From positions 1-64,000 of the forward strand of contig JACQVQ010000013.1 in assembly GCA_016209685.1 (NCBI GenBank): a stretch of DNA of 64,000 nucleotides, given 5' to 3'. Positions within the stretch are counted from its first letter, which is position 1. The number at the start of each line of letters is the position of its first letter. Positions 35,645 through 55,895 of this stretch are shown here, piece after piece. A program made the translations under genes and the position numbers. The notes below the pieces were generated by a model. That model saw nothing but the letters and a program-made list of their open reading frames with translations, was not told the origin of the DNA and ran no database searches. The DNA is from Planctomycetota bacterium. GTDB taxonomy: Bacteria; Planctomycetota; Brocadiia; Brocadiales; Bathyanammoxibiaceae.

Positions 35645-36910
35645 CTAAGCCCAGACCAGCCAGAGGAACACAGAGGCAGTGCCCACTGCCACTACGGTAA
35701 AGGGTAACCCTACCTTGACAAATTCCATAAAGGATACGGGGGTACCACTCTTATGCAAGAGTCCGATAGCCACTATGTTAGCCGAGGCACCTACTGGGGT
35801 GATATTACCCCCCAGGCACGAGCCCACCAACAACCCAAATACGAGGAGTACCACGGAGGAGTGCCCCATGTCCTCCCCCACGTACTGTACCACCGGTATG
35901 ATAGCCACCAGGTAGGGCACATTATCTACAAAGGCAGAAAGGATAACGGAGAGCCAGACTATAAGGAGGAACGTCTTGAGCAAGTCCTCCCCGCAAAACC
36001 CCTCCAAGAGATGGGAGGCATGGGTAATCCATCCCGTATGGGTCAACCCTCCCACTACGACAAAGACACCGGGGAGGAAGAGGGCGGTATCCCAGTCAAG
36101 GGCCTTCAAGAACTTTCTAACCTCCCCATCCAGGGCAAACTCATACCAGACTATCCCAAATATGCCGAAGGTTATGCAGATGATGCCTGCTATCCTCACC
36201 CCGGGGATAATGAGAGAGGCGACTGCCAGACAGGTGATGAGCAATGCCAGCATCCAGGTCGGTACCCATGAGACAACCTCTTCTATCTCCACGGGCTCAA
36301 CGGCCTGGTTGTACTTCCTGAAGAGGAAATACAGGACAAGAAAAGAGGTCAGGGCGCCAACCTCAACGGCAAAAAATATGCTGGGCTTACCATGATAAAA
36401 GAAGAAATCATCAAAGCCCATCCCCATATAACCAGCAAGGATGATACTGGGAGAATCCCCTATCATGGTAGCCGTACCCTGCAGGTTAGAACACATAGCT
36501 ATAGATATAAGCAACAGGGTAGGGGGTACATTCAGACGCCTAGCAATGGCAAAGGCCACAGGGGCAACGACAAGTACTGTGGCTACGTTTTCCATAAAGG
36601 CCGAAATAAAACTGGTCAAGACGCATAAGATTAACATAGCCTCCCCGGTGCTCCTCGCCCTGCTTACCAGGGACTCTGCAAGGAAGACAGGCATCCTGGA
36701 AATCATCAGGAGTTCTGCCATCACCAGAGTACCCACAAAGATACCCATGACGTTCCAGTTGATGGACCAGAAGGCCTCGTGAGGGGTAAGTACGCCTAAA
36801 AGGAGTAGTAAGGTGGCCCCACCGCAGGCACAATAGGCACGCCAGGTGGGTATGGCAATAAACCCTATGTAGCAACCTATGAATACAGCAAGGGATACGT
36901 ATTTCTCCAC
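35645..36910 (-). CDS. ArsB/NhaD-type ion transporter
   Basis: 421 residues, about 11 to 12 membrane helices. The two inverted repeats are marked by SAFMENVATVLVVAPVAFAI and SAFVDNVPYLVAIIPVV, each with the Asn/Asp hairpin-tip residues of the ion transporter (IT) superfamily, and by GTATMIGDSPSIIL and GGNITPVGASANIV. NhaD-like Na+/H+ exchange or oxyanion transport are both possible. ATG 36910 lies downstream of the terminator of the Cys-rich peptide genes. Confidence 0.85.
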   Translation of the reverse strand: MEKYVSLAVFIGCYIGFIAIPTWRAYCACGGATLLLLLGVLTPHEAFWSINWNVMGIFVGTLVMAELLMISRMPVFLAESLVSRARSTGEAMLILCVLTSFISAFMENVATVLVVAPVAFAIARRLNVPPTLLLISIAMCSNLQGTATMIGDSPSIILAGYMGMGFDDFFFYHGKPSIFFAVEVGALTSFLVLYFLFRKYNQAVEPVEIEEVVSWVPTWMLALLITCLAVASLIIPGVRIAGIICITFGIFGIVWYEFALDGEVRKFLKALDWDTALFLPGVFVVVGGLTHTGWITHASHLLEGFCGEDLLKTFLLIVWLSVILSAFVDNVPYLVAIIPVVQYVGEDMGHSSVVLLVFGLLVGSCLGGNITPVGASANIVAIGLLHKSGTPVSFMEFVKVGLPFTVVAVGTASVFLWLVWA

Positions 36911-36998: not shown

Positions 36999-37027
36999 GT
37001 AGGGGCACGACATCGTCGTGCCCCTAC
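36999..37027. repeat. GTAGGGGC palindrome (family A)
   Basis: 29 bp, inner arms CACGAC/GTCGTG around ATC. Lies between the last Cys-rich gene and its terminator. Confidence 0.9.
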
Positions 37028-37040
37028 TAGACCCTTCTGG

Positions 37041-37220
37041 TTAGTACTTAGGGCACTTGCACTCCGTAGATTTCCCACTGCAATGGTCGCACTTGCAACC
37101 CTGCTTGCAAGTGCACTTTTCCGCATAGGCTATGCCAGCGTTTTGAGAAATCCAACTAGCAGGCGCCATACCAACCACAAGCACTACCACAGAAACAGTA
37201 AGTAGAGCTCTTTTCAGCAT
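37041..37220 (-). CDS. Tiny secreted Cys-rich peptide, distal member
   Basis: 59 residues: MLKRALLTVSVVVLVVGM signal, AYA|EKC-type cleavage site near 34, then a mature part of about 25 residues with seven Cys in CTCKQGCKCDHC and ECKCPKY. GGAGGA precedes the ATG. The CxC and CxxC density is metallothionein-like; export suggests metal binding or redox work outside the cytoplasm. It is the last of four genes and the most diverged: its mature part is not alignable Cys-for-Cys with the other three, although the leader and spacing are similar. Confidence 0.78.
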   Translation of the reverse strand: MLKRALLTVSVVVLVVGMAPASWISQNAGIAYAEKCTCKQGCKCDHCSGKSTECKCPKY

Positions 37221-37231
37221 TTAGTCCTCCC

Positions 37232-37420
37232 TTACTTCTTCTGGCAGTCAGGGCACTTCTTGCAACCGTCGGGACCACCTGGACACTTCTCATGCTTGCA
37301 CTTATCACACTTGGCGGCGGCCATTACTACACCATCAGTAACCAGGCTCACGCCCAGGGGGCCAGTGGCCACTACTACCGCAACTAGAAGACCTGCTACC
37401 AGAACTAAGCTCTTAAGCAT
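37232..37420 (-). CDS. Tiny secreted Cys-rich peptide, copy 3
   Basis: 62 residues: MLKSLVLVAGLLVAVVVATG signal, VVMAAAKC cleavage region, mature part with six Cys (KCDKCKHEKC then GCKKCPDCQKK). Only a few positions differ from the next two copies (AAAKC for AASKC, PGGPD for EGGAD). GGAGGA ribosome site. I know no named family; a metal- or haem-handling periplasmic peptide is an inference from Cys content. Confidence 0.82.
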   Translation of the reverse strand: MLKSLVLVAGLLVAVVVATGPLGVSLVTDGVVMAAAKCDKCKHEKCPGGPDGCKKCPDCQKK

Positions 37421-37508
37421 TTTGTCCTCCTAAAGGTTTAGAAATTAGAAACTTACACAAAATTAAACCCCTACTCTCCAGAAGGGGAATTAAGGGAAAT
37501 TATATTCC

Positions 37509-37697
37509 CTACTTCTTCTGGCAGTCGGGGCACTTCTTGCAACCATCAGCGCCACCTTCACACTTCTCATGCTTGCACTTGTCACACTTGGAGGCGGCCA
37601 TTACTACACCATCGGTGACCAGGCTTACGCCCAAGGGGCCAGTGGCCACTGCTACGGCAACCAGAAGACCTGCTACCAGAACCAAGCTCTTAAACAT
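37509..37697 (-). CDS. Tiny secreted Cys-rich peptide, copy 2
   Basis: 62 residues, MFKSLVLVAGLLVAVAVATG signal, mature KCDKCKHEKCEGGADGCKK and CPDCQKK. Its protein differs from copy 1 by one signal-peptide residue (GLLVA versus GILVA). The intergenic stretch with AAAGGTTTAGAAATTAGAAAC is also conserved, so the duplication unit of about 270 bp included the untranslated DNA. Confidence 0.85.
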   Translation of the reverse strand: MFKSLVLVAGLLVAVAVATGPLGVSLVTDGVVMAASKCDKCKHEKCEGGADGCKKCPDCQKK

Positions 37698-37776
37698 TTT
37701 ACTCCTCCTAAAGGTTTAGAAATTAGAAACTTACGCAAAATTAAACCCCTACTCCCCAGAAGGGAAACTATATCCC

Positions 37777-37965
37777 CTACTTCTTCTGGCAGTCGGGGCA
37801 CTTCTTGCAGCCATCAGCGCCACCTTCACACTTCTCATGCTTGCACTTGTCACACTTGGAGGCGGCCATTACTACACCATCGGTGACCAGGCTTACGCCC
37901 AAGGGGCCAGTGGCCACTGCTACAGCAACCAGAATACCTGCTACCAGAACTAAGCTCTTAAACAT
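37777..37965 (-). CDS. Tiny secreted Cys-rich peptide, copy 1 (promoter-proximal)
   Basis: 62 residues. The frame opens at ATG 37977, but that ATG overlaps the ribosome site (TGGAGGGT) for MFKSLVLVAGIL at 37965, which is the likely start and gives the same length as the other copies. Mature six-Cys part is identical to copy 2. First gene of the four-gene run; the promoter candidate at 38226-38254 lies about 260 bp upstream. Confidence 0.85.
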   Translation of the reverse strand: MFKSLVLVAGILVAVAVATGPLGVSLVTDGVVMAASKCDKCKHEKCEGGADGCKKCPDCQKK

Positions 37966-38225
37966 TTTACCCTCCATAAAGGCTTAGAAATTAAAAACAT
38001 ACACTAAGATTAAACCCATACTCCCAATCTCCCCTCTTTCTCCTCCTTTCCTCCCCTACGACCATAGCCATAAGGGAAGCACAGAAATTTCCAGGATGCT
38101 GGAGTATCGGTGAAGAGCTAGCTAGAGAAGACTCCCTAAATAGGGGTTATTATCGTGAGGCAATCTTTGCAGATTTTATCCATAAGTTACCCTGAAACCA
38201 CGTCCAGGAAACCTGATAGCGGAAG
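37966..38225 (-). other. Long 5' leader of the Cys-rich peptide operon
   Basis: About 250 nt between the likely transcription start and the first peptide gene, free of the dispersed repeats that fill most gaps. It contains a 15-codon minus-strand ORF MDKICKDCLTIITPI with a CxxC motif (38143-38190) and an ACCCC...GGGG-type hairpin. A leader-encoded peptide or metal-responsive element is possible; I do not recognise a known riboswitch. Confidence 0.4.
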
Positions 38226-38254
38226 AAAATAGCAAAAACACGAATAAATGTCAA
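38226..38254 (-). promoter_or_regulatory. Sigma-70 promoter of the Cys-rich peptide operon
   Basis: Minus strand TTGACA (38254-38249), a 17-bp spacer and TATTTT (38231-38226). Nothing else in the 500-bp gap fits as well for minus-strand transcription. Confidence 0.6.
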
Positions 38255-38364: not shown

Positions 38365-38392
38365 GTAGGGGCAATTCATGAATTGCCCCTAC
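38365..38392. repeat. GTAGGGGC palindrome (family A)
   Basis: 28 bp with inner arms AATTCATGAATT, flanked by GAATTCAGAATAC periodic repeats (38337-38360 and 38395-38412). Confidence 0.9.
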
Positions 38393-42233: not shown

Positions 42234-43637
42234 TTACGATCTAATTGAATTAGTCTCCGGTTCCATAAGATGGTAAGCAATTTCCCTATGCTGGCTAATG
42301 TCCATACCAGCCACTTCCTCTGCCTCAGGTGCTCTAATACCTTTAGTTACTGCCTTTATGAAAAGGATGAGTACCGCGGTGCAGGCACAAGCGTATCCCC
42401 ATGCACACACGACGCCTACAAATTGTTCCAACATCTGGGCAGGGTTTCCGTAAAATAGGCCATCGTCACCAGCGGGGTTTACAAGCTTGCTGGCAAAGAG
42501 ACCTGTTGCAAGGGCCCCAAAGCTCCCGCCCATTGCGTGTATCCCTACCACGTCCAGGGCATCATCATAACCCAGGGCCCTCTTCATCCATTTTACGCAG
42601 GAGTAACACAAGAACCCTGCACCGGCCCCTATGGCAAGGGATGGCATAACTGCTACAAAACCTGAGGCAGGTGTAATGGCCACCAGCCCTGCTACTGCAC
42701 CTGAGCAAGTGCCAATCAGAGTGGGTTTCCTGTCAAATATCCACTCCATTACGTTCCATGTAAAGGCGGCGGTAGCGGTGGCTGTGTTGGTGACTGCCCA
42801 GGCGCTGGCGGCAAGTCCATTGGCGGCGACTGCACTACCTGCGTTAAAGCCGAACCACCCAAACCACAGGAGGGCGGCACCTATCATCGTAAAAGGTACA
42901 TTATGCGGGGGCTTTATACTCTTGCGTCTGCCTAGAAACAGACAAAATACCAGGGCCGCAGCACCAGATTGGATATGCACGACCGTTCCGCCAGCAAAAT
43001 CCAATGCACCAAACTTATATAACCACCCATCCGTGGCCCACACCCAATGGGCTATCACTGGATAGCATCCACTCATCCACAAGAGGGCAAAGAGGAGCCA
43101 GGAAACGAATTTGAGCCTCTCTACAATGGCGCCTGTTACAAGGGCAAGGGTAATAGCGGCAAATGTTAACTGGAACATACAGAAAGTTAGGTGGGGTATG
43201 GTCGTTGCGTAAAGGGTGCTAGGCAATTGCCCTACGTAGTCCGCTGGGTCCGCACGCCCTGCTCCCAGGACGGCCCACTGAAGGCCCCCAATAAACCCGT
43301 TGGAGGGGGAAAAGGCCAGGCTATAAGACCAGAGCACCCACATCATGCTGGTGATGCAGAAGGCAATCCAGTTCATCCATATGGTATTACCCACGTTCTT
43401 TGCCCTTGTCATCCCTCCATAAAAGAGGGCAAGACCAGGGATGGTCATAGCCAACACCAGGGCAGAGGAGGTCATCATCCATGCATTATCCCCTGTATCA
43501 ATCGTGGGGGGTGGTGGGGGCACCTCAGCGACCACCGCCACAACTACTTCTTCCGCCATTGCCTTCAGTGCAAATAGCGCTAACATCGGCAGTACAGAAA
43601 ACAAGGAGATACCTAAATGGTACCTTCTTCTCATCAT
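42234..43637 (-). CDS. amt: Ammonium transporter (first of three Amt proteins)
   Basis: 467 residues: signal peptide MMRRRYHLGISLFSVLPML...AMAEE, then 11 membrane helices. The twin histidines of the pore are H221 (GGTVVHIQSG) and H367 (VVGIHAMGG); ALDFAGGTVVH is the Amt signature and FNAGSAVAAN follows the fifth half. The C-terminal tail (PEAEEVAGMDISQHREIAYHL) is of the length that P-II proteins control. Ribosome site GGGAGGG. A full MITE-like element (43706-43826) lies directly upstream, so its promoter is probably inside or beyond the element; no sigma-54 site is visible here. Confidence 0.93.
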   Translation of the reverse strand: MMRRRYHLGISLFSVLPMLALFALKAMAEEVVVAVVAEVPPPPPTIDTGDNAWMMTSSALVLAMTIPGLALFYGGMTRAKNVGNTIWMNWIAFCITSMMWVLWSYSLAFSPSNGFIGGLQWAVLGAGRADPADYVGQLPSTLYATTIPHLTFCMFQLTFAAITLALVTGAIVERLKFVSWLLFALLWMSGCYPVIAHWVWATDGWLYKFGALDFAGGTVVHIQSGAAALVFCLFLGRRKSIKPPHNVPFTMIGAALLWFGWFGFNAGSAVAANGLAASAWAVTNTATATAAFTWNVMEWIFDRKPTLIGTCSGAVAGLVAITPASGFVAVMPSLAIGAGAGFLCYSCVKWMKRALGYDDALDVVGIHAMGGSFGALATGLFASKLVNPAGDDGLFYGNPAQMLEQFVGVVCAWGYACACTAVLILFIKAVTKGIRAPEAEEVAGMDISQHREIAYHLMEPETNSIRS

Positions 43638-47133: not shown

Positions 47134-48651
47134 CTACTCTTTTAGTGAACCCTGGCTGACTGGTTTGCCCTTCCTTACGACTACCTGGGGCATCTCCTCC
47201 TCGGCCTCTTCCACCTCGTAGACGCCGATATGCCTCCTTATTACTTTTTCCAGTTCACCAACATACCTCTCCTCGGCAGGATAACACTCTACGCCGTGGG
47301 TATGGAGGTCAAGGCCTTCCAGTTCTACGTACTCCGGGACCCTGAGGCCAAGCGAGTACTTCAGGCCAAGGAATATGGCAAAACCAGCGGCTGAGGCCCA
47401 GGCTATGGCAGTAACCATGGCAATAAACTGCGCCAGGAGTTGATAACCGGAACCTGTTATGAGTCCATTTACACCACCGTAGGAGCCGTCAGCGAAGATC
47501 CCAACGGCCAGGAGTCCCCAGAGGCCATTAGCCCCGTGGACCGAGACTGCACCCAGTGGGTCGTCTACCTTGAATACGCACTCCACAAACCAGACGCAAC
47601 CTCTCATGAGAAGGCCAGCCAGCAGGCCGATGACTACCGAGGCCCATATAGGCACATAGGCGCATGGGCCGGTAATGGCTACAAGGCCAGCCAGGGCACC
47701 GTTACACGCCATCATAATATCAGGCTTCTTAGTAGTGGCATAGGAGAGCCACATTACTACGGCGGCACCGGCAGAGGCGGCAAGGAAGGTGTTGGTGGCT
47801 ATGATTGAGATCCTCAAGTCTGTGGCGGCCAGCGTACTCCCTGCGTTAAAGCCGAACCAGCCGAAGACAAGGATGAGGGTCCCTACTACTACAAAGGTAA
47901 GGTTGTGACCAGGTATGGCACTGGGGGTGCCGTCTTTTAGATATTTTCCAATCCTGGGACCGACTGCCCACGCCCCTATCAGGGCCATTATCCCCCCCAC
48001 GGCGTGGACTACCCCCGAACCTGCAAAATCCCTGGCTCCCACACCAAAGGGCAGGGTGCCCAGCCATCCGCCTCCCCACATCCAGTGTCCATAGATGGGA
48101 TACACCACACCGCAGACTAACATACTGTAAATCAGATAGGCCGCCCAACGGGTCCTCTCTGCCACTGCCCCGGCAATGATGGAGACGGCCTTCGTGGCAA
48201 ACATGACCTGGAAGAGCCACAGGACTACCGTGTTTACGTCATAGGACGGGCCTATGAGGAGGAAGCCACTCCAGCCCACCATGGTATCTCCCTTGTCCAA
48301 CCCGGAGGCGAGCTGTGAACCTCCGAACATCAATGCAAAACCAAAGAGCCAGAAGACCAGGGCCCCCACCGTAGTATCCATGAAACAGTGGGACATGTAA
48401 TTCAGCATGTGCTTTGGTCTCAGGAACCCCCCTAAGAGGGCAAACCCTGCCTGCATGATAAACACCAGAAAGGCCCCTATAAGTACCCAGGTAAAATTGA
48501 CGGAGTACTTCAACCCCGGTACGGTGTCGGAATAGGTCCCCGCACCACTGGGGTCTGCCGCTTCAAGAACCCTACCGAACAATAGAATGGCTAACCCGAT
48601 TAGCGGTAGCGCCACGAGCGAAAAATGAGATGTCTTTAGCATTTTATTCAC
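47134..48651 (-). CDS. amt: Ammonium transporter (second Amt)
   Basis: 505 residues from GTG 48651 (GGGAG 5 nt upstream); ATG 48642 is a possible alternative. N-terminal signal-like helix, then 11 membrane helices. Pore histidines in GSGVVHAVGG and VSVHGANGLWG, plus AGxRTRWAAYL-type loop AVAERTRWAAYL and FNAGSTLAATDL. It is closer to the Amt domain of the sensor kinase than to the first amt (shared GPRIGKY.KDG loop and DDPLGAVSVHG). The long acidic C-tail (YEVEEAEEEMPQVVVRKG) could meet the adjacent P-II proteins. Same transcript as the two P-II genes under the sigma-54 site at 49714-49730. Confidence 0.92.
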   Translation of the reverse strand: MNKMLKTSHFSLVALPLIGLAILLFGRVLEAADPSGAGTYSDTVPGLKYSVNFTWVLIGAFLVFIMQAGFALLGGFLRPKHMLNYMSHCFMDTTVGALVFWLFGFALMFGGSQLASGLDKGDTMVGWSGFLLIGPSYDVNTVVLWLFQVMFATKAVSIIAGAVAERTRWAAYLIYSMLVCGVVYPIYGHWMWGGGWLGTLPFGVGARDFAGSGVVHAVGGIMALIGAWAVGPRIGKYLKDGTPSAIPGHNLTFVVVGTLILVFGWFGFNAGSTLAATDLRISIIATNTFLAASAGAAVVMWLSYATTKKPDIMMACNGALAGLVAITGPCAYVPIWASVVIGLLAGLLMRGCVWFVECVFKVDDPLGAVSVHGANGLWGLLAVGIFADGSYGGVNGLITGSGYQLLAQFIAMVTAIAWASAAGFAIFLGLKYSLGLRVPEYVELEGLDLHTHGVECYPAEERYVGELEKVIRRHIGVYEVEEAEEEMPQVVVRKGKPVSQGSLKE

Positions 48652-48680
48652 GGTGACTCCCCTTGTCTTTCCCAGAACCC

Positions 48681-48752
48681 TCAAAAAAATACTATAGTAA
48701 TGTTAATAGCAACCAAGACCACCACAACCAACAGAAAGAATGGGTCATCCAT
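48681..48752 (-). CDS. Possible 23-residue single-helix membrane peptide between glnB and amt
   Basis: ATG 48752 to TGA 48681 encodes MDDPFFLLVVVVLVAINITI plus VFF: two acids at the N-terminus and an uninterrupted hydrophobic helix. It fills the glnB-amt2 gap in the transcription direction and ends 29 bp before the amt2 GTG. The ribosome site is weak (GGGAAAAAC too far upstream). GTTCTGGGAAARACAA occurs once before this ORF and once before amt2, suggesting duplicated initiation regions. It could be a small Amt partner or a chance frame. Confidence 0.45.
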   Translation of the reverse strand: MDDPFFLLVVVVLVAINITIVFF

Positions 48753-52103: not shown

Positions 52104-55100
52104 TTAGAGGTCCCGGGCCAAGAGTGAAGGTATGGGTAACTGTACGGATATGGTGGTGCCCTTTCCCTCCTTGCTCTTTACTTCTATAGTGCCTTTGTGG
52201 GCCTTTACGATGTTGTAGGAGACGAAGAGCCCTAGTCCGGTCCCTGCCCCCCCTTTTGTGCTGAAGAAGGGTTCAAATATCTTTCCCAGGTCTTTTTCTG
52301 GTATTCCAGAACCCGTATCAGAAAAATCTATCTTGACCCACTCGCCTCTAACCCCCGTCTTTATCTTGAGGTCCCCTCCTTCGGTCATGGCGTCTGAGGC
52401 GTTTATGATGATGTTGGTAAAGACCTGCTCCAGTTGATGTGGGTCGCAGTACACGGGGGGGAGGTGGGCGTCTAACTCCTGGAGCAGGTTTATGTTGCTT
52501 AGTCTTAATTTGCTCTCCAGGAAGTTTACCACGTTGCGGATAGAGAGGTTTACGTCCTGGCTGACCTTGCCTTCAAAGACCTGTTGGTGTGATTCAAGGA
52601 GCCTCTTTACTATCCCTGCTATCCGGTTGCAACCCCTTATCGCCAGGTCCAGATACTTTTTCTTGTCTTCCTCCTTTGTCTCTTCTGCGTGGAGGTGGAG
52701 GTAGTTTATTATCCCTGCCAGGGGGTTGTTAATCTCGTGGGCGACGCTGGCCACAAGCCTGCCCGTAGAGGCGAGTTTTTCCATAGAGATGAGTTGATCC
52801 TCCAGCCTCTTTTTGGCGGTAATGTCTCTAAAGACGCACCGTATGGCCACCACGTTGCCCTTGTCGTCGTAGATGGGGTTATCGTTAAGGCCGACGTCTA
52901 TGACGCTCCCGTCCTTTTTCAGCAGTTGTAATTCTAATCCCTCAATGTGCAGACCTGAGAAGCGTCTGGGTAGTAAGGTCGCATAGGTCTCTCGTACCCC
53001 GGGGGGCTGGGAGTCGGAGATGGGCCTGCCCACCAGTTCTTCTTTATGGTTGTAGCCGAGCATCTTTGCACCGCTCAGGTTGCAGTCCAGGATTATGCCC
53101 TGGTTGTCATGGGTAAGATAGATGTCCGGGGCGTTGTCGTAGAGGTCCTTGTACTTCTTTTCCGATTCTCTTATCTTGATAAAGAGCCTGATGTTTTCTA
53201 TGGCTATGGCCAGTTGGGGGGCTATCTGCGTAAGGATACGGAAGTGTCTCTCTGAGAAGTTGCGGGGTCTCTTACTGGCGAAGTTAATGGTCCCGATAAC
53301 GGAACCCTTGTACTCCAGGGGATAGCCGAGCCTTGACCGTATGCCTTCCTTAAGGAGTACCTCATCAGACCAGAACTCCTTCTCCACGGTATCTTGTACA
53401 ATGTAGGGGCGGGCGGTGGTGTAGACCCTTTCCAGCAGGCTCCCCTCTCTCAAGAAGCTGTAACCCTCCCTTATGCCTGTGTCCTTGTAATCAGTATTCA
53501 GGGCAAAGACCTCAAACCTCTGTCCATCTTCCCCCATCAGGGCTATGCTTATCCTGTCAAAGTTTATTACGTTCTTTAACTCCGAACCCACGGCCTTAAA
53601 GACGTCTGTCAGGAAGCTGGAAGAGACTACCTTGTTTATGTTGTAGACAATCTCCTTTTCCGATTCTAACCTCTTCTGCTCGGTGGTATCCGTTATCACC
53701 CCCACTACACCTACGGTGTCGTTGTTACTGTCCCGTAGCGGAAAGAACCTGCTGGAGGTATAACCCTCTCTACCCCTGAGGGTGGTGTAGGGTACGTTTT
53801 CTGCCGTAGAAAATTCCCCGATTGAGGCGTAACCGATAAGCCCCTTCAGTTCTTGTCCCATGAGTTGGGGATAGACCTCCAGGACGTCCTTGCCCAGTAC
53901 CTCTTGACGGCCAACCCCTGAAATCTCCTCCATCCTCCTGTTCCAGTAGGCTATCCTATTGTCCTTATGCAGTACTACCAGGCCGTCGTACAGGGTATTT
54001 ACCACGTCCTCAAATTTCCTCTTCTGTTCTTCCAGTTCCCGTGTCCTGGCTTTTACCTTAAGTTCCAGGCCTCCCCTGGCCGCTTTGAGTTCTTCAATGA
54101 GGTGGGTGGTCTCCCGCATGTCTCTGGCTATGGTAACTGCCCCCGTTATCCCTCCCGCCTCGTCCCTCATTATAGAGCCATTGACGTTAACGGGGAGCTT
54201 CTGACCCTCCTTGGTGAAGTAATAGTTGTCAAACCCCTTGAGGAGGCCCTCCCGCAGGAGTTTCTGCAATCGGTCTTGAAAGACCGACTGTTCTTCCGCC
54301 ACCAACATGCTCAGGGGTTTGCCCACTAGCTCCTGTTTTTTAAACCCCAGGAGGCCCTCGGCAGAGGGGTTAAGGGTGAGTATCTTTCCCTGGGGGTCGG
54401 TGACCACCAGGACGTCTTGCAGGCTGTCTATAATAGCCTGCGTGTAGCTCTTCGCCTTCAGGAGTTCACTCGTCCTTTCCTTTACCTTTTGTTCCAGGAC
54501 GGCATTAACGTCTTGAAGGCGGTTAATCCTTGTAAAGTTGAGCCAGGAGGCCGTATCCTCGTACTCGGCGAGGTTTAGACCCATTATCTCTTCCTCTCGC
54601 CCCACCCTGAGCCGTGCCACCTTGTTACCTGCCCAGAAGAAAAACATGGATAGGCCGAAGGCCCAGGCAAAGGCCACAGTGACGCCAAGGAACTGGATGC
54701 CTACCTGTGAGAGCCTGTCCCCGGTCGGGAGGGTAGATAGGGGGCAGAAGAGGGCCAGGGCTATTGTGCCTATGGCCCCGCATACTCCATGGACAGAGAT
54801 GGCGGCCACGGGGTCGTCTATCTTCAAGACTTTTTCAAAGAGGTCTCTTGCCAGGAGTACCAGTACCCCTGCTAACACCCCCACCACAGCGGCCCCCCAG
54901 GGGTGGAGTCTGTTAGAACCAGCGGTTACGGCCACAAGGCCACCCAGTACCCCTATAAGTACGTCCACACCATCCAGTCTCTTATTTCTGACCCAACTAT
55001 AGAGGATGGCCGAACAACCGGCCGCCCCAGCGGCAATATTGGTGTTGGAGATCACCAGGGCAATCTTTACATCTGCCCTGAGCATAGACCCCCCATTAAA

Positions 55101-55895
55101 CCCGAACCAGCCAAACCACAAGAAGAAGGTCCCTATGGTGGCAATGGGGATGTTATGCTGGCCCATCCGGTTAACCGTCCCGTCCTTGTTGTACTTACCT
55201 ATCCTGGGACCCACTAATATGGCCCCCGCCAGGGCTACCCACCCCCCTATAGAATGGACTACTGTGGAACCGGCAAAGTCAACAAAGCCCATCCTGCCCA
55301 GCCATCCCGCCTGGTCATGTATCCATATATTCCCCCAGACCCAGTGACCAAATATGGGATAAATCACGCACACCATCACGACCGTGCACCATATATGGAC
55401 GAACATCCGCGTCCTCTCGGCCATGGCCCCGGTAAATATAGTGGCGGCCGTCCCAGCGAATACTACCTGGAAGAAGGCGAAGGCGAAGCCCAGAGGGACC
55501 TTATCCACGTCCATAAAGCAGAAGTGACTGGCGCCTACAAGCCCTGCCTGGCTATCCCCGAACATCAGGCCAAAACCAGCGAGGAAGTAGGCTACTGAGG
55601 CTATTATGAACACTACGATGTTCTTTATGGAGATGTTTATGGCATTCTTCGCCTGGACGAAACCGGCCTCCAGGGCCGTAAAGCCTACCTGCATAAAGAA
55701 GACCATGCAGGCCGCCACGACCAGCCATACGACGTCCGGATTTCTTCCCTCAGGAGGAGTGGCCCCACCACCCATGGAAAGGCCGCCCCCCTGGGCATAG
55801 GCACTCTCTGGCGATAGTGTAGCCCCCGTTGCCAGCCAACAAAGGGTCAGCAGTAGTGGGAGGGGCGTTAGCAGGATATATTTTCTATCAGACAT
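52104..55895 (-). CDS. Ammonium-sensing hybrid: Amt channel domain fused to PAS-PAS-GAF-PAS histidine kinase
   Basis: 1263 residues. Signal peptide 1-34 (ends ESAYA), Amt domain about 54-440 with both pore histidines (H214 in STVVHSIGG, H369 in ISVHGVCG), coiled-coil link 445-482, PAS 482-596, coiled coil 600-625, PAS 626-742, GAF 755-900, PAS 912-1028, HisKA with phospho-acceptor H1053 (VAHEINNPLAG), HATPase 1145-1258 (N-box NIIINASDAM, DTGSGIP, GTGLGL). Anammox bacteria encode Amt-kinase fusions; Ks-Amt5 of Kuenenia was shown to be an ammonium sensor. This version has an unusually long cytoplasmic input section: three PAS and one GAF. Output is presumably the adjacent NtrC-type regulator. 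The ATG has no ribosome site and lies only about 3 nt after the predicted sigma-54 start. Confidence 0.94.
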   Translation of the reverse strand: MSDRKYILLTPLPLLLTLCWLATGATLSPESAYAQGGGLSMGGGATPPEGRNPDVVWLVVAACMVFFMQVGFTALEAGFVQAKNAINISIKNIVVFIIASVAYFLAGFGLMFGDSQAGLVGASHFCFMDVDKVPLGFAFAFFQVVFAGTAATIFTGAMAERTRMFVHIWCTVVMVCVIYPIFGHWVWGNIWIHDQAGWLGRMGFVDFAGSTVVHSIGGWVALAGAILVGPRIGKYNKDGTVNRMGQHNIPIATIGTFFLWFGWFGFNGGSMLRADVKIALVISNTNIAAGAAGCSAILYSWVRNKRLDGVDVLIGVLGGLVAVTAGSNRLHPWGAAVVGVLAGVLVLLARDLFEKVLKIDDPVAAISVHGVCGAIGTIALALFCPLSTLPTGDRLSQVGIQFLGVTVAFAWAFGLSMFFFWAGNKVARLRVGREEEIMGLNLAEYEDTASWLNFTRINRLQDVNAVLEQKVKERTSELLKAKSYTQAIIDSLQDVLVVTDPQGKILTLNPSAEGLLGFKKQELVGKPLSMLVAEEQSVFQDRLQKLLREGLLKGFDNYYFTKEGQKLPVNVNGSIMRDEAGGITGAVTIARDMRETTHLIEELKAARGGLELKVKARTRELEEQKRKFEDVVNTLYDGLVVLHKDNRIAYWNRRMEEISGVGRQEVLGKDVLEVYPQLMGQELKGLIGYASIGEFSTAENVPYTTLRGREGYTSSRFFPLRDSNNDTVGVVGVITDTTEQKRLESEKEIVYNINKVVSSSFLTDVFKAVGSELKNVINFDRISIALMGEDGQRFEVFALNTDYKDTGIREGYSFLREGSLLERVYTTARPYIVQDTVEKEFWSDEVLLKEGIRSRLGYPLEYKGSVIGTINFASKRPRNFSERHFRILTQIAPQLAIAIENIRLFIKIRESEKKYKDLYDNAPDIYLTHDNQGIILDCNLSGAKMLGYNHKEELVGRPISDSQPPGVRETYATLLPRRFSGLHIEGLELQLLKKDGSVIDVGLNDNPIYDDKGNVVAIRCVFRDITAKKRLEDQLISMEKLASTGRLVASVAHEINNPLAGIINYLHLHAEETKEEDKKKYLDLAIRGCNRIAGIVKRLLESHQQVFEGKVSQDVNLSIRNVVNFLESKLRLSNINLLQELDAHLPPVYCDPHQLEQVFTNIIINASDAMTEGGDLKIKTGVRGEWVKIDFSDTGSGIPEKDLGKIFEPFFSTKGGAGTGLGLFVSYNIVKAHKGTIEVKSKEGKGTTISVQLPIPSLLARDL

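What the first reader, a model, noticed from the sequence alone, without database searches (positions are those of the whole stretch)
37041..37977. Four tandem genes for exported Cys-rich mini-proteins
Three near-identical 62-residue peptides and a diverged 59-residue one, each a signal peptide plus about 25 residues with 6-7 Cys (KCDKCKHEKC, CPDC; CTCKQGCKCDHC). The unit duplicated with its upstream DNA. No known family comes to mind; export makes an ordinary metallothionein unlikely. Possible metal scavenger, haem or copper relay, or disulfide-rich toxin/signal.
Basis: partly seen in the sequence, partly recalled or inferred. Interest (0 to 1): 0.68.

Follow-up and report, generated by a model that had tools for sequence, protein, structure and literature searches.

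The report
Exported metallothionein-like peptides in anammox bacterium
An anammox bacterium carries four small genes for exported, cysteine-packed peptides that look like a bacterial counterpart of metal-binding metallothioneins, and relatives of one of them are attached to metal-binding proteins encoded beside copper-efflux pumps.

Summary
Four intact minus-strand genes encode a signal peptide plus about 25 residues with 6 Cys (three copies, module B) or 7 Cys (one copy, module A). They are under purifying selection, and no curated family matches them. One correction: the 59-residue peptide is not a diverged copy but a different module. A relative genome fuses A and B in one exported protein.

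Module A, CxC-x3-CxCxHCxG-x4-CxC, occurs in only 31 places in 257 Gb of genomes, nearly all in anammox Brocadiales. It also forms the C-terminal tail of exported YHS-domain proteins throughout the order. Seven of 30 such genes lie within 5 kb of a CusA/CzcA heavy-metal pump gene (0.33 expected). It occurs in lipoproteins, and five times in tandem in a Nitrospirae protein. Its spacing contains the CxC-x3-CxC-x2-C core of fungal copper-thioneins.

Best explanation: extracytoplasmic, metallothionein-like thiolate sponges for soft metals, most likely Cu(I). Metal binding, metal identity and expression are inferred, not shown. A conserved leader of about 250 nt precedes the cluster, a possible regulatory RNA.

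The parts
37041..37220 (-). module-A mini-protein, 59 aa: signal peptide (AYA) + EKCTCKQGCKCDHCSGKSTECKCPKY, 7 Cys + 1 His
   Evidence: motif scan; orthologues in G001, G002, G006 and most Brocadiaceae-like genomes
37053..37115 (-). the 63-nt A motif CxC-x3-CxCxHCxG-x4-CxC
   Evidence: 1 match, 0 in 100 shuffles; 31 stretches in 257 Gb
37232..37420 (-). module-B mini-protein copy 1, 62 aa, 6 Cys + 1 His (CDKCKHEKCPGGPDGCKKCPDC)
   Evidence: identical in protein to its G002 orthologue with 10 synonymous changes
37509..37697 (-). module-B mini-protein copy 2, 62 aa
37777..37965 (-). module-B mini-protein copy 3, 62 aa (alternative in-frame ATG at 37977); first gene of the cluster
37215..37472 (-). 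258-nt direct repeat, copy 1 (gene B1 with its proximal upstream DNA)
   Evidence: 78% identical to the reference copy
37492..37749 (-). 258-nt direct repeat, copy 2 (reference)
37760..38017 (-). 258-nt direct repeat, copy 3
   Evidence: 93% identical
37966..38225 (-). long conserved 5' leader upstream of the cluster; candidate cis-regulatory RNA (function unproven)
   Evidence: 91-93% identical to G001/G002 and 68% to G006, versus 61-71% for the intergenic DNA beyond the promoter; no Rfam match
38226..38254 (-). promoter-like site TTGACA-17-TATTTT (extended -10), hexamers identical in G000, G001 and G002
35645..36910 (-). ArsB/NhaD/CitMHS-type permease directly downstream; conserved neighbour in 5 genomes, but present without the mini-genes in 2 others, so probably not an obligate partner

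Best explanation
The four genes encode small peptides that are exported across the inner membrane and, after signal-peptide cleavage, act as metallothionein-like thiolate sponges for soft metal ions, most likely Cu(I) (or Ag(I)), less likely Zn/Cd. The mature A peptide (7 Cys, 1 His) would hold a single Cu-thiolate cluster of about five or six ions. The B peptide (6 Cys, 1 His) would hold a Cu4S6-like or Zn2Cys6-like cluster. They would buffer metal outside the cytoplasm (periplasm-like paryphoplasm, or possibly the anammoxosome) next to P-type ATPase and CusCBA-type efflux, whose own accessory YHS proteins and lipoproteins carry the same or a similar module. Tandem copies raise the dose. Shown: the genes, their selection, the modules, their fusions and their genomic neighbourhoods. 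Inferred: export, metal binding, metal identity, compartment and physiological role.
For: Purifying selection keeps every Cys. Module A is invariant at 7 Cys + His + Gly across 17 diverse sequences, and B at 6 Cys + His. A signal-type N-terminus with an AXA site just before the Cys block occurs in 23 of 26 short A-type proteins. Versions with a lipobox by inspection exist in Myxococcales (L102, L104) and at the end of the Cus cluster of G004, so the module is extracytoplasmic. A is fused to the metal-binding YHS domain (Pfam PF04945, E 8e-16 and 3e-15) across the order. Seven of 30 YHS-A genes lie within 5 kb of CusA/CzcA, 0.33 expected, none of 20,000 simulations as high. G001 and G003 clusters are CopA-type ATPase, outer-membrane factor, CusB, CusA and YHS-A. 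The window's own genome ends its Cus operon with a Cys-rich lipoprotein. A and B occur side by side in one exported 118-aa protein at the same locus, upstream of the same permease, in G004. A Nitrospirae protein carries five tandem A-type modules plus a YtkA domain, as modular copper-thioneins of Tremellales fungi do. The published fungal 7-Cys pattern [CXC]-X5-[CXC]-X3-[CXC]-X2-C (PMC4755600) shares the CXC-X3-CXC-X2-C core of A.
Against: No metal-binding, expression or localisation data exist for these proteins. The window's own cluster is not next to copper genes. The stand-alone A and B genes are not within 5 kb of CusA anywhere; five A genes are 7.5-8.6 kb away, and B genes none within 15 kb. 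The proximity test treats related loci as independent. The downstream permease is of the ArsB/NhaD type, which would fit arsenite or other ions. The Cys-rich tail is Lys-rich, so an uncleaved, cytoplasm-facing tail cannot be formally excluded from sequence. The AlphaFold model is poor (pLDDT 62), as expected for an apo-metallothionein, and so gives no support.
Confidence: 0.6

Rival explanations
1. The modules are structural or buffering Zn(II)/Cd(II) sites rather than copper sponges. B in particular (CxxC-x4-C-x2..6-CxxC-x2-C plus His) would form a two-zinc Cys6-type cluster, and A a Cys/His zinc cluster as in cyanobacterial metallothioneins.
For: An invariant His in both modules, as bacterial zinc metallothioneins have. 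Weak, non-significant profile matches of B to zinc-ribbon and Zn2Cys6 chains. In Brocadiaceae a B-type protein with a His-rich N-terminus has a metal ABC binding-protein-like gene about 5 kb away.
Against: CusA/CzcA, CopA-type ATPase, YHS and (near one B gene) a NosL-like neighbour point more to Cu/Ag. The CxC-rich 7-Cys arrangement of A resembles copper-thioneins.
Confidence: 0.2
2. Secreted disulfide-rich peptide: toxin, bacteriocin or signal between cells.
For: Small, exported, Cys-rich, tandem copies with some sequence change between them.
Against: Orthologues at a fixed locus across three genera of the family and, for A, next to rplM-rpsI across Brocadiaceae-like genera. Purifying selection on the mature part. 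Closely spaced CxC motifs, and fusion to YHS and YtkA domains. No immunity or processing genes seen nearby.
Confidence: 0.05
3. Regulatory leader peptides: translation of the exported Cys-rich ORFs senses extracytoplasmic metal and controls the downstream permease, as proposed for copper-sensing nascent exported proteins (PMC9973294, abstract seen).
For: Conserved order B-B-A-permease in the genus and A- or AB-permease in two further genera, and a long conserved 5' leader before the first mini-gene.
Against: Three tandem full-length copies are not needed for a leader. Homologues elsewhere precede unrelated genes such as rplM. G003 and G005 have the permease without the mini-genes.
Confidence: 0.1
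4. Membrane-anchored Cys-rich peptides (signal peptide not cleaved), with the thiolate tail serving as an oxidative-stress or redox buffer rather than as a metal store.
For: A hydrophobic stretch of 16-19 residues that could be an anchor. Anammox machinery is oxygen-sensitive.
Against: AXA sites conserved right before the Cys block. Lipoprotein and YHS versions with normal signal sequences. An invariant Cys/His geometry is not needed for a redox buffer.
Confidence: 0.1

Closest known systems
Fungal family-8 copper-thioneins (Neurospora crassa and Agaricus MT; modular Cryptococcus and Tremella MTs; PMC4755600)
   Same: About 25-residue unit with 7 Cys, CXC motifs, the CXC-X3-CXC-X2-C core, and tandem amplification of the unit (five units in the Nitrospirae protein)
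   Different: The last CXC follows instead of precedes the core (a cyclic permutation of spacing); an invariant His and Gly; exported; bacterial; no sequence homology shown
Bacterial metallothioneins SmtA/BmtA/PmtA (Pfam PF02069)
   Same: Small, Cys-rich with His, presumed metal-thiolate cluster
   Different: No Pfam hit at E up to 10; classical ones lack a signal peptide (PmtA has been seen on the cell surface by an unknown route, PMC11237414); no treble-clef-like region
Csp1-type exported copper storage proteins (PMC7558416, PMC12510493)
   Same: Extracytoplasmic thiolate-rich protein as a Cu(I) store or buffer (as proposed here)
   Different: Csp1 is a Tat-exported four-helix bundle binding 13-15 Cu(I); these peptides are about 25 residues, CXC-rich and predicted unfolded
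YHS-domain proteins of metal efflux clusters (PF04945)
   Same: The A module is the C-terminal tail of many exported YHS proteins in this order
   Different: The window peptides have no YHS domain, only the tail module

Membership tests
Prokaryotic metallothionein, Pfam PF02069 | Match to the curated profile | tested here: not met
   hmmscan at E up to 10 gives no metallothionein family for any of the three proteins tested; none in NCBIfam either
Metallothionein in the functional sense | Small protein, very high Cys content in CXC/CXXC motifs, few aromatics | tested here: met
   Mature parts have 6-7 Cys in about 25 residues, CXC or CXXC spacing, only a terminal Tyr as aromatic
Metallothionein in the functional sense | Binds several soft metal ions as thiolate clusters | not testable with these tools
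   Needs a metal titration and mass spectrometry
Fungal family-8 copper-thionein | Cys order [CXC]-X5-[CXC]-X3-[CXC]-X2-C | tested here: not met
   A is [CXC]-X3-[CXC]-X2-C-X6-[CXC]; it shares the core but is permuted relative to the pattern in PMC4755600
Csp1 copper storage protein | Tat signal and four-helix bundle with about 13 inward Cys | tested here: not met
   No twin arginine in the signal, 59-62 aa in all, 6-7 Cys in a tail predicted as coil
YHS-domain protein | Match to PF04945 | tested here: not met
   No YHS hit for the window peptides; the tail module of YHS proteins is shared
c-type cytochrome or haem relay | CXXCH haem attachment motif | tested here: not met
   No CXXCH in any of the four peptides; B has CxxCxH and A has CxHC
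Exported protein (Sec signal peptide) | Positive start, hydrophobic core, small residues at -3/-1 | tested here: met
   Hydrophobic maximum near residues 6-24, AXA before the Cys block in 23 of 26 A-type proteins; judged by rule, no trained predictor available

The most novel reading that the evidence does not exclude
A new, unnamed extracytoplasmic metallothionein system of anammox bacteria. Two distinct thiolate modules (A and B), used singly, fused to each other, fused to YHS or repeated, form a Cu(I) buffer and hand-over line to Cus efflux, with expression set by a conserved leader RNA of about 250 nt that responds to metal.
Probability: 0.15. Interest if true: 0.75.

Novelty: new variant of a known kind. 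Interest (0 to 1): 0.52.

Why it matters
Well-described bacterial metallothioneins are small and cytoplasmic, and exported thiolate copper stores are known mainly as the four-helix Csp1 type. A conserved family of exported, metallothionein-like mini-proteins in the anammox order, with a module shared with YHS proteins in copper-type efflux clusters, would add a second way in which bacteria hold soft metals outside the cytoplasm. It would also give a handle on copper sensitivity of anammox bacteria, which matters in wastewater treatment. The YHS tail gives a testable role to a module that has no curated family.

Tried and rejected
Pfam, NCBIfam and PHROGs scans of the peptides: nothing above noise. 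Solved structures by profile: none for A, only chance-level hits for B. Viral contigs: no relatives of B and no A motif. Plasmids: no match to the five-module protein; only the YHS part of YHS-A matched, mainly annotated as heavy-metal ATPases. A-motif hits L085, L092 and L110 are not in a listed reading frame and are taken as chance. The match in G000:C6 is a gyrase-region frame and was discarded. A CopY/BlaI-type operator TACANNTGTA is absent from the window. The leader does not fold better than shuffles (z -0.8), and its four-genome covariation is too thin to claim a structure. AlphaFold of A: low confidence. The idea that the permease is an obligate partner was dropped because G003 and G005 lack the mini-genes. 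Literature searches joining YHS with metallothionein, or naming a periplasmic metallothionein, returned nothing in the held library.

Full report
OBSERVATION. The four ORFs exist as described on the minus strand: 37041-37220 (59 aa), 37232-37420, 37509-37697 and 37777-37965 (62 aa each). The finding's end coordinate, 37977, is an alternative in-frame ATG; the start at 37965 is the one preceded by the conserved ribosome-binding site in the relatives. The three 62-aa genes lie in a 258-nt direct repeat with 277- and 268-nt spacing. Only about 55 nt of upstream DNA belong to the repeat, so the cluster has one promoter-like site, TTGACA-17-TATTTT at 38254-38226, and reads as one operon. Selection shows that the ORFs are real genes. 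Against the closest orthologue the whole first B gene has 10 synonymous and 0 non-synonymous changes, and the mature part of the 59-aa gene has 4 and 0, while the signal part changes more freely.

TWO MODULES, NOT ONE. The 59-aa peptide is not a diverged copy. Aligning relatives gives two distinct patterns. A is CxC-x3-CxCxHCxG-x4-CxC, with seven Cys, His and Gly invariant in 17 sequences. B is CxxCxHxxC-x2..6-CxxCxxC, with six Cys and His invariant in 14 sequences. In genome G004 both modules follow one another in a single exported protein of 118 aa at the same chromosomal place, upstream of the same permease. In Brocadiaceae-like genomes B occurs as a double module of about 105 aa with a His-rich N-terminus, and A as stand-alone peptides of 55-67 aa.

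ORGANISM. The genome (2.02 Mb, 14 contigs) carries hydrazine synthase alpha, so it is an anammox bacterium.

DISTRIBUTION. An exact scan for the A motif over 257 billion bases of 84,980 species gave 31 stretches, most of them Brocadiales. Three (L085, L092, L110) are not in a listed reading frame and are likely chance; the others include three Myxococcales- or Proteobacteria-type MAGs and one Nitrospirae MAG. Profile searches of 392 and 294 Planctomycetota genomes hit only Brocadiales for both modules, apart from two marginal A matches at E about 0.01. Viral contigs had none. No curated family covers either module.

FUSIONS AND NEIGHBOURS. Module A also forms the C-terminal tail of exported YHS-domain proteins (PF04945) in most families of the order, including two in the window's own genome. 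Several sit in metal-efflux clusters. G004 has CusB with YHS, CusA/CzcA (TIGR00914), YHS-A, and a lipoprotein with an A-like module. G001 and G003 have a CopA-type ATPase, outer-membrane factor, CusB, CusA and YHS-A. G022 has a CsoR-type repressor, CusA and YHS-A. G042 has CusA and two YHS-A genes. Counting all loci, 7 of 30 YHS-A genes are within 5 kb of a CusA/CzcA gene against 0.33 expected, with none of 20,000 simulations reaching it. This treats loci as independent, and two of the genomes are congeners. The window's own Cus operon ends with a 60-aa Cys-rich lipoprotein-like ORF ending in ...CQCDCVEREGECHC.... A Nitrospirae protein of 306 aa has five tandem CxC-x3-CxCxHC units followed by a YtkA-like domain.

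STAND-ALONE GENES. These are less clearly tied to copper. None lies within 5 kb of CusA, although five A genes lie 7.5-8.6 kb away, near a BlaI-type repressor, an M56 peptidase and an outer-membrane factor in one locus. In Bathyanammoxibiaceae the mini-genes sit directly upstream of an ArsB/NhaD/CitMHS-type permease in five genomes. Two other genomes have that permease without the mini-genes, so it is a stable neighbour rather than a proven partner.

EXPORT. The N-termini have one to three basic residues, a hydrophobic core and, in 23 of 26 A-type proteins, AXA just before the Cys block. Lipoprotein versions exist by inspection. This is rule-based; no trained predictor was available.

MECHANISM. 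The best reading is an extracytoplasmic metallothionein-like thiolate sponge, most likely for Cu(I). The spacing of A contains the CXC-X3-CXC-X2-C core of the fungal 7-Cys copper-thionein pattern [CXC]-X5-[CXC]-X3-[CXC]-X2-C, which binds about five Cu(I) per unit and was multiplied in tandem in Cryptococcus and Tremella (PMC4755600). Here the remaining CXC comes after the core, a cyclic permutation of spacing; this is an analogy, not shown homology. Exported thiolate copper buffers have a precedent of a different fold, Csp1 (PMC7558416; PMC12510493). What is shown is the genes, selection, fusions and neighbourhoods. Export, metal binding, metal identity and role are inferred. Haem relay is excluded by the absence of CXXCH. 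Toxin or signal is unlikely.

LEADER. About 250 nt between the promoter-like site and the first B gene are as conserved as the coding genes: 91-93% in the genus and 68% in another genus, against 61-71% for the intergenic DNA beyond the promoter. The element occurs once per genome, only in front of this cluster. It matches no Rfam family, and structure support is weak. It is recorded as a candidate regulatory leader.

VERDICT. Observation confirmed; interpretation partly supported and sharpened; a new variant of a known kind.

Noticed in passing
window 37966-38225 (minus): Long 5' leader as conserved as coding sequence across three species and recognisable in another genus, single copy, no Rfam match; possible novel cis-regulatory RNA.
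   Followed up: partly
window ~37000-37028 and 38365-38392: Two perfect or near-perfect hairpins with the same ends (GTAGGGGC...GCCCCTAC) flank the cluster; they look like a dispersed palindromic repeat or mobile hairpin element.
   Followed up: no
L153:5221-5403 (G000:C5): 60-aa Cys-rich lipoprotein-like ORF after CusA in the window genome's own Cus operon, tail CQCDCVEREGECHC.
   Followed up: partly
L109:2371-3291: Nitrospirae protein of 306 aa with five tandem CxC-x3-CxCxHC modules and a YtkA-like domain; a bacterial look-alike of modular fungal metallothioneins.
   Followed up: partly
L073:5435-5596, L074:5550-5711, L091:4177-4338: A further Cys-rich exported 53-aa peptide (CGCPK...CKC) next to the A gene in Brocadiaceae-like genomes.
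   Followed up: no
L064, L063, L014: A third exported Cys-rich mini-protein type in Brocadiaceae-like genomes (CDKCGH...CKCECH), in tandem in G057.
   Followed up: no
window 42234-43637, 47134-48684, 52104-55895: Three ammonium-transporter-like genes in one window, one of them apparently fused to PAS/GAF and histidine-kinase domains (1263 aa), judged by eye from the translation.
   Followed up: no
L061, L062, L080, L072: Double-B proteins of Brocadiaceae-like genomes lie near DUF1326 and, in some loci, NosL-like, cytochrome c' and sulfide-oxidation-like genes.
   Followed up: partly
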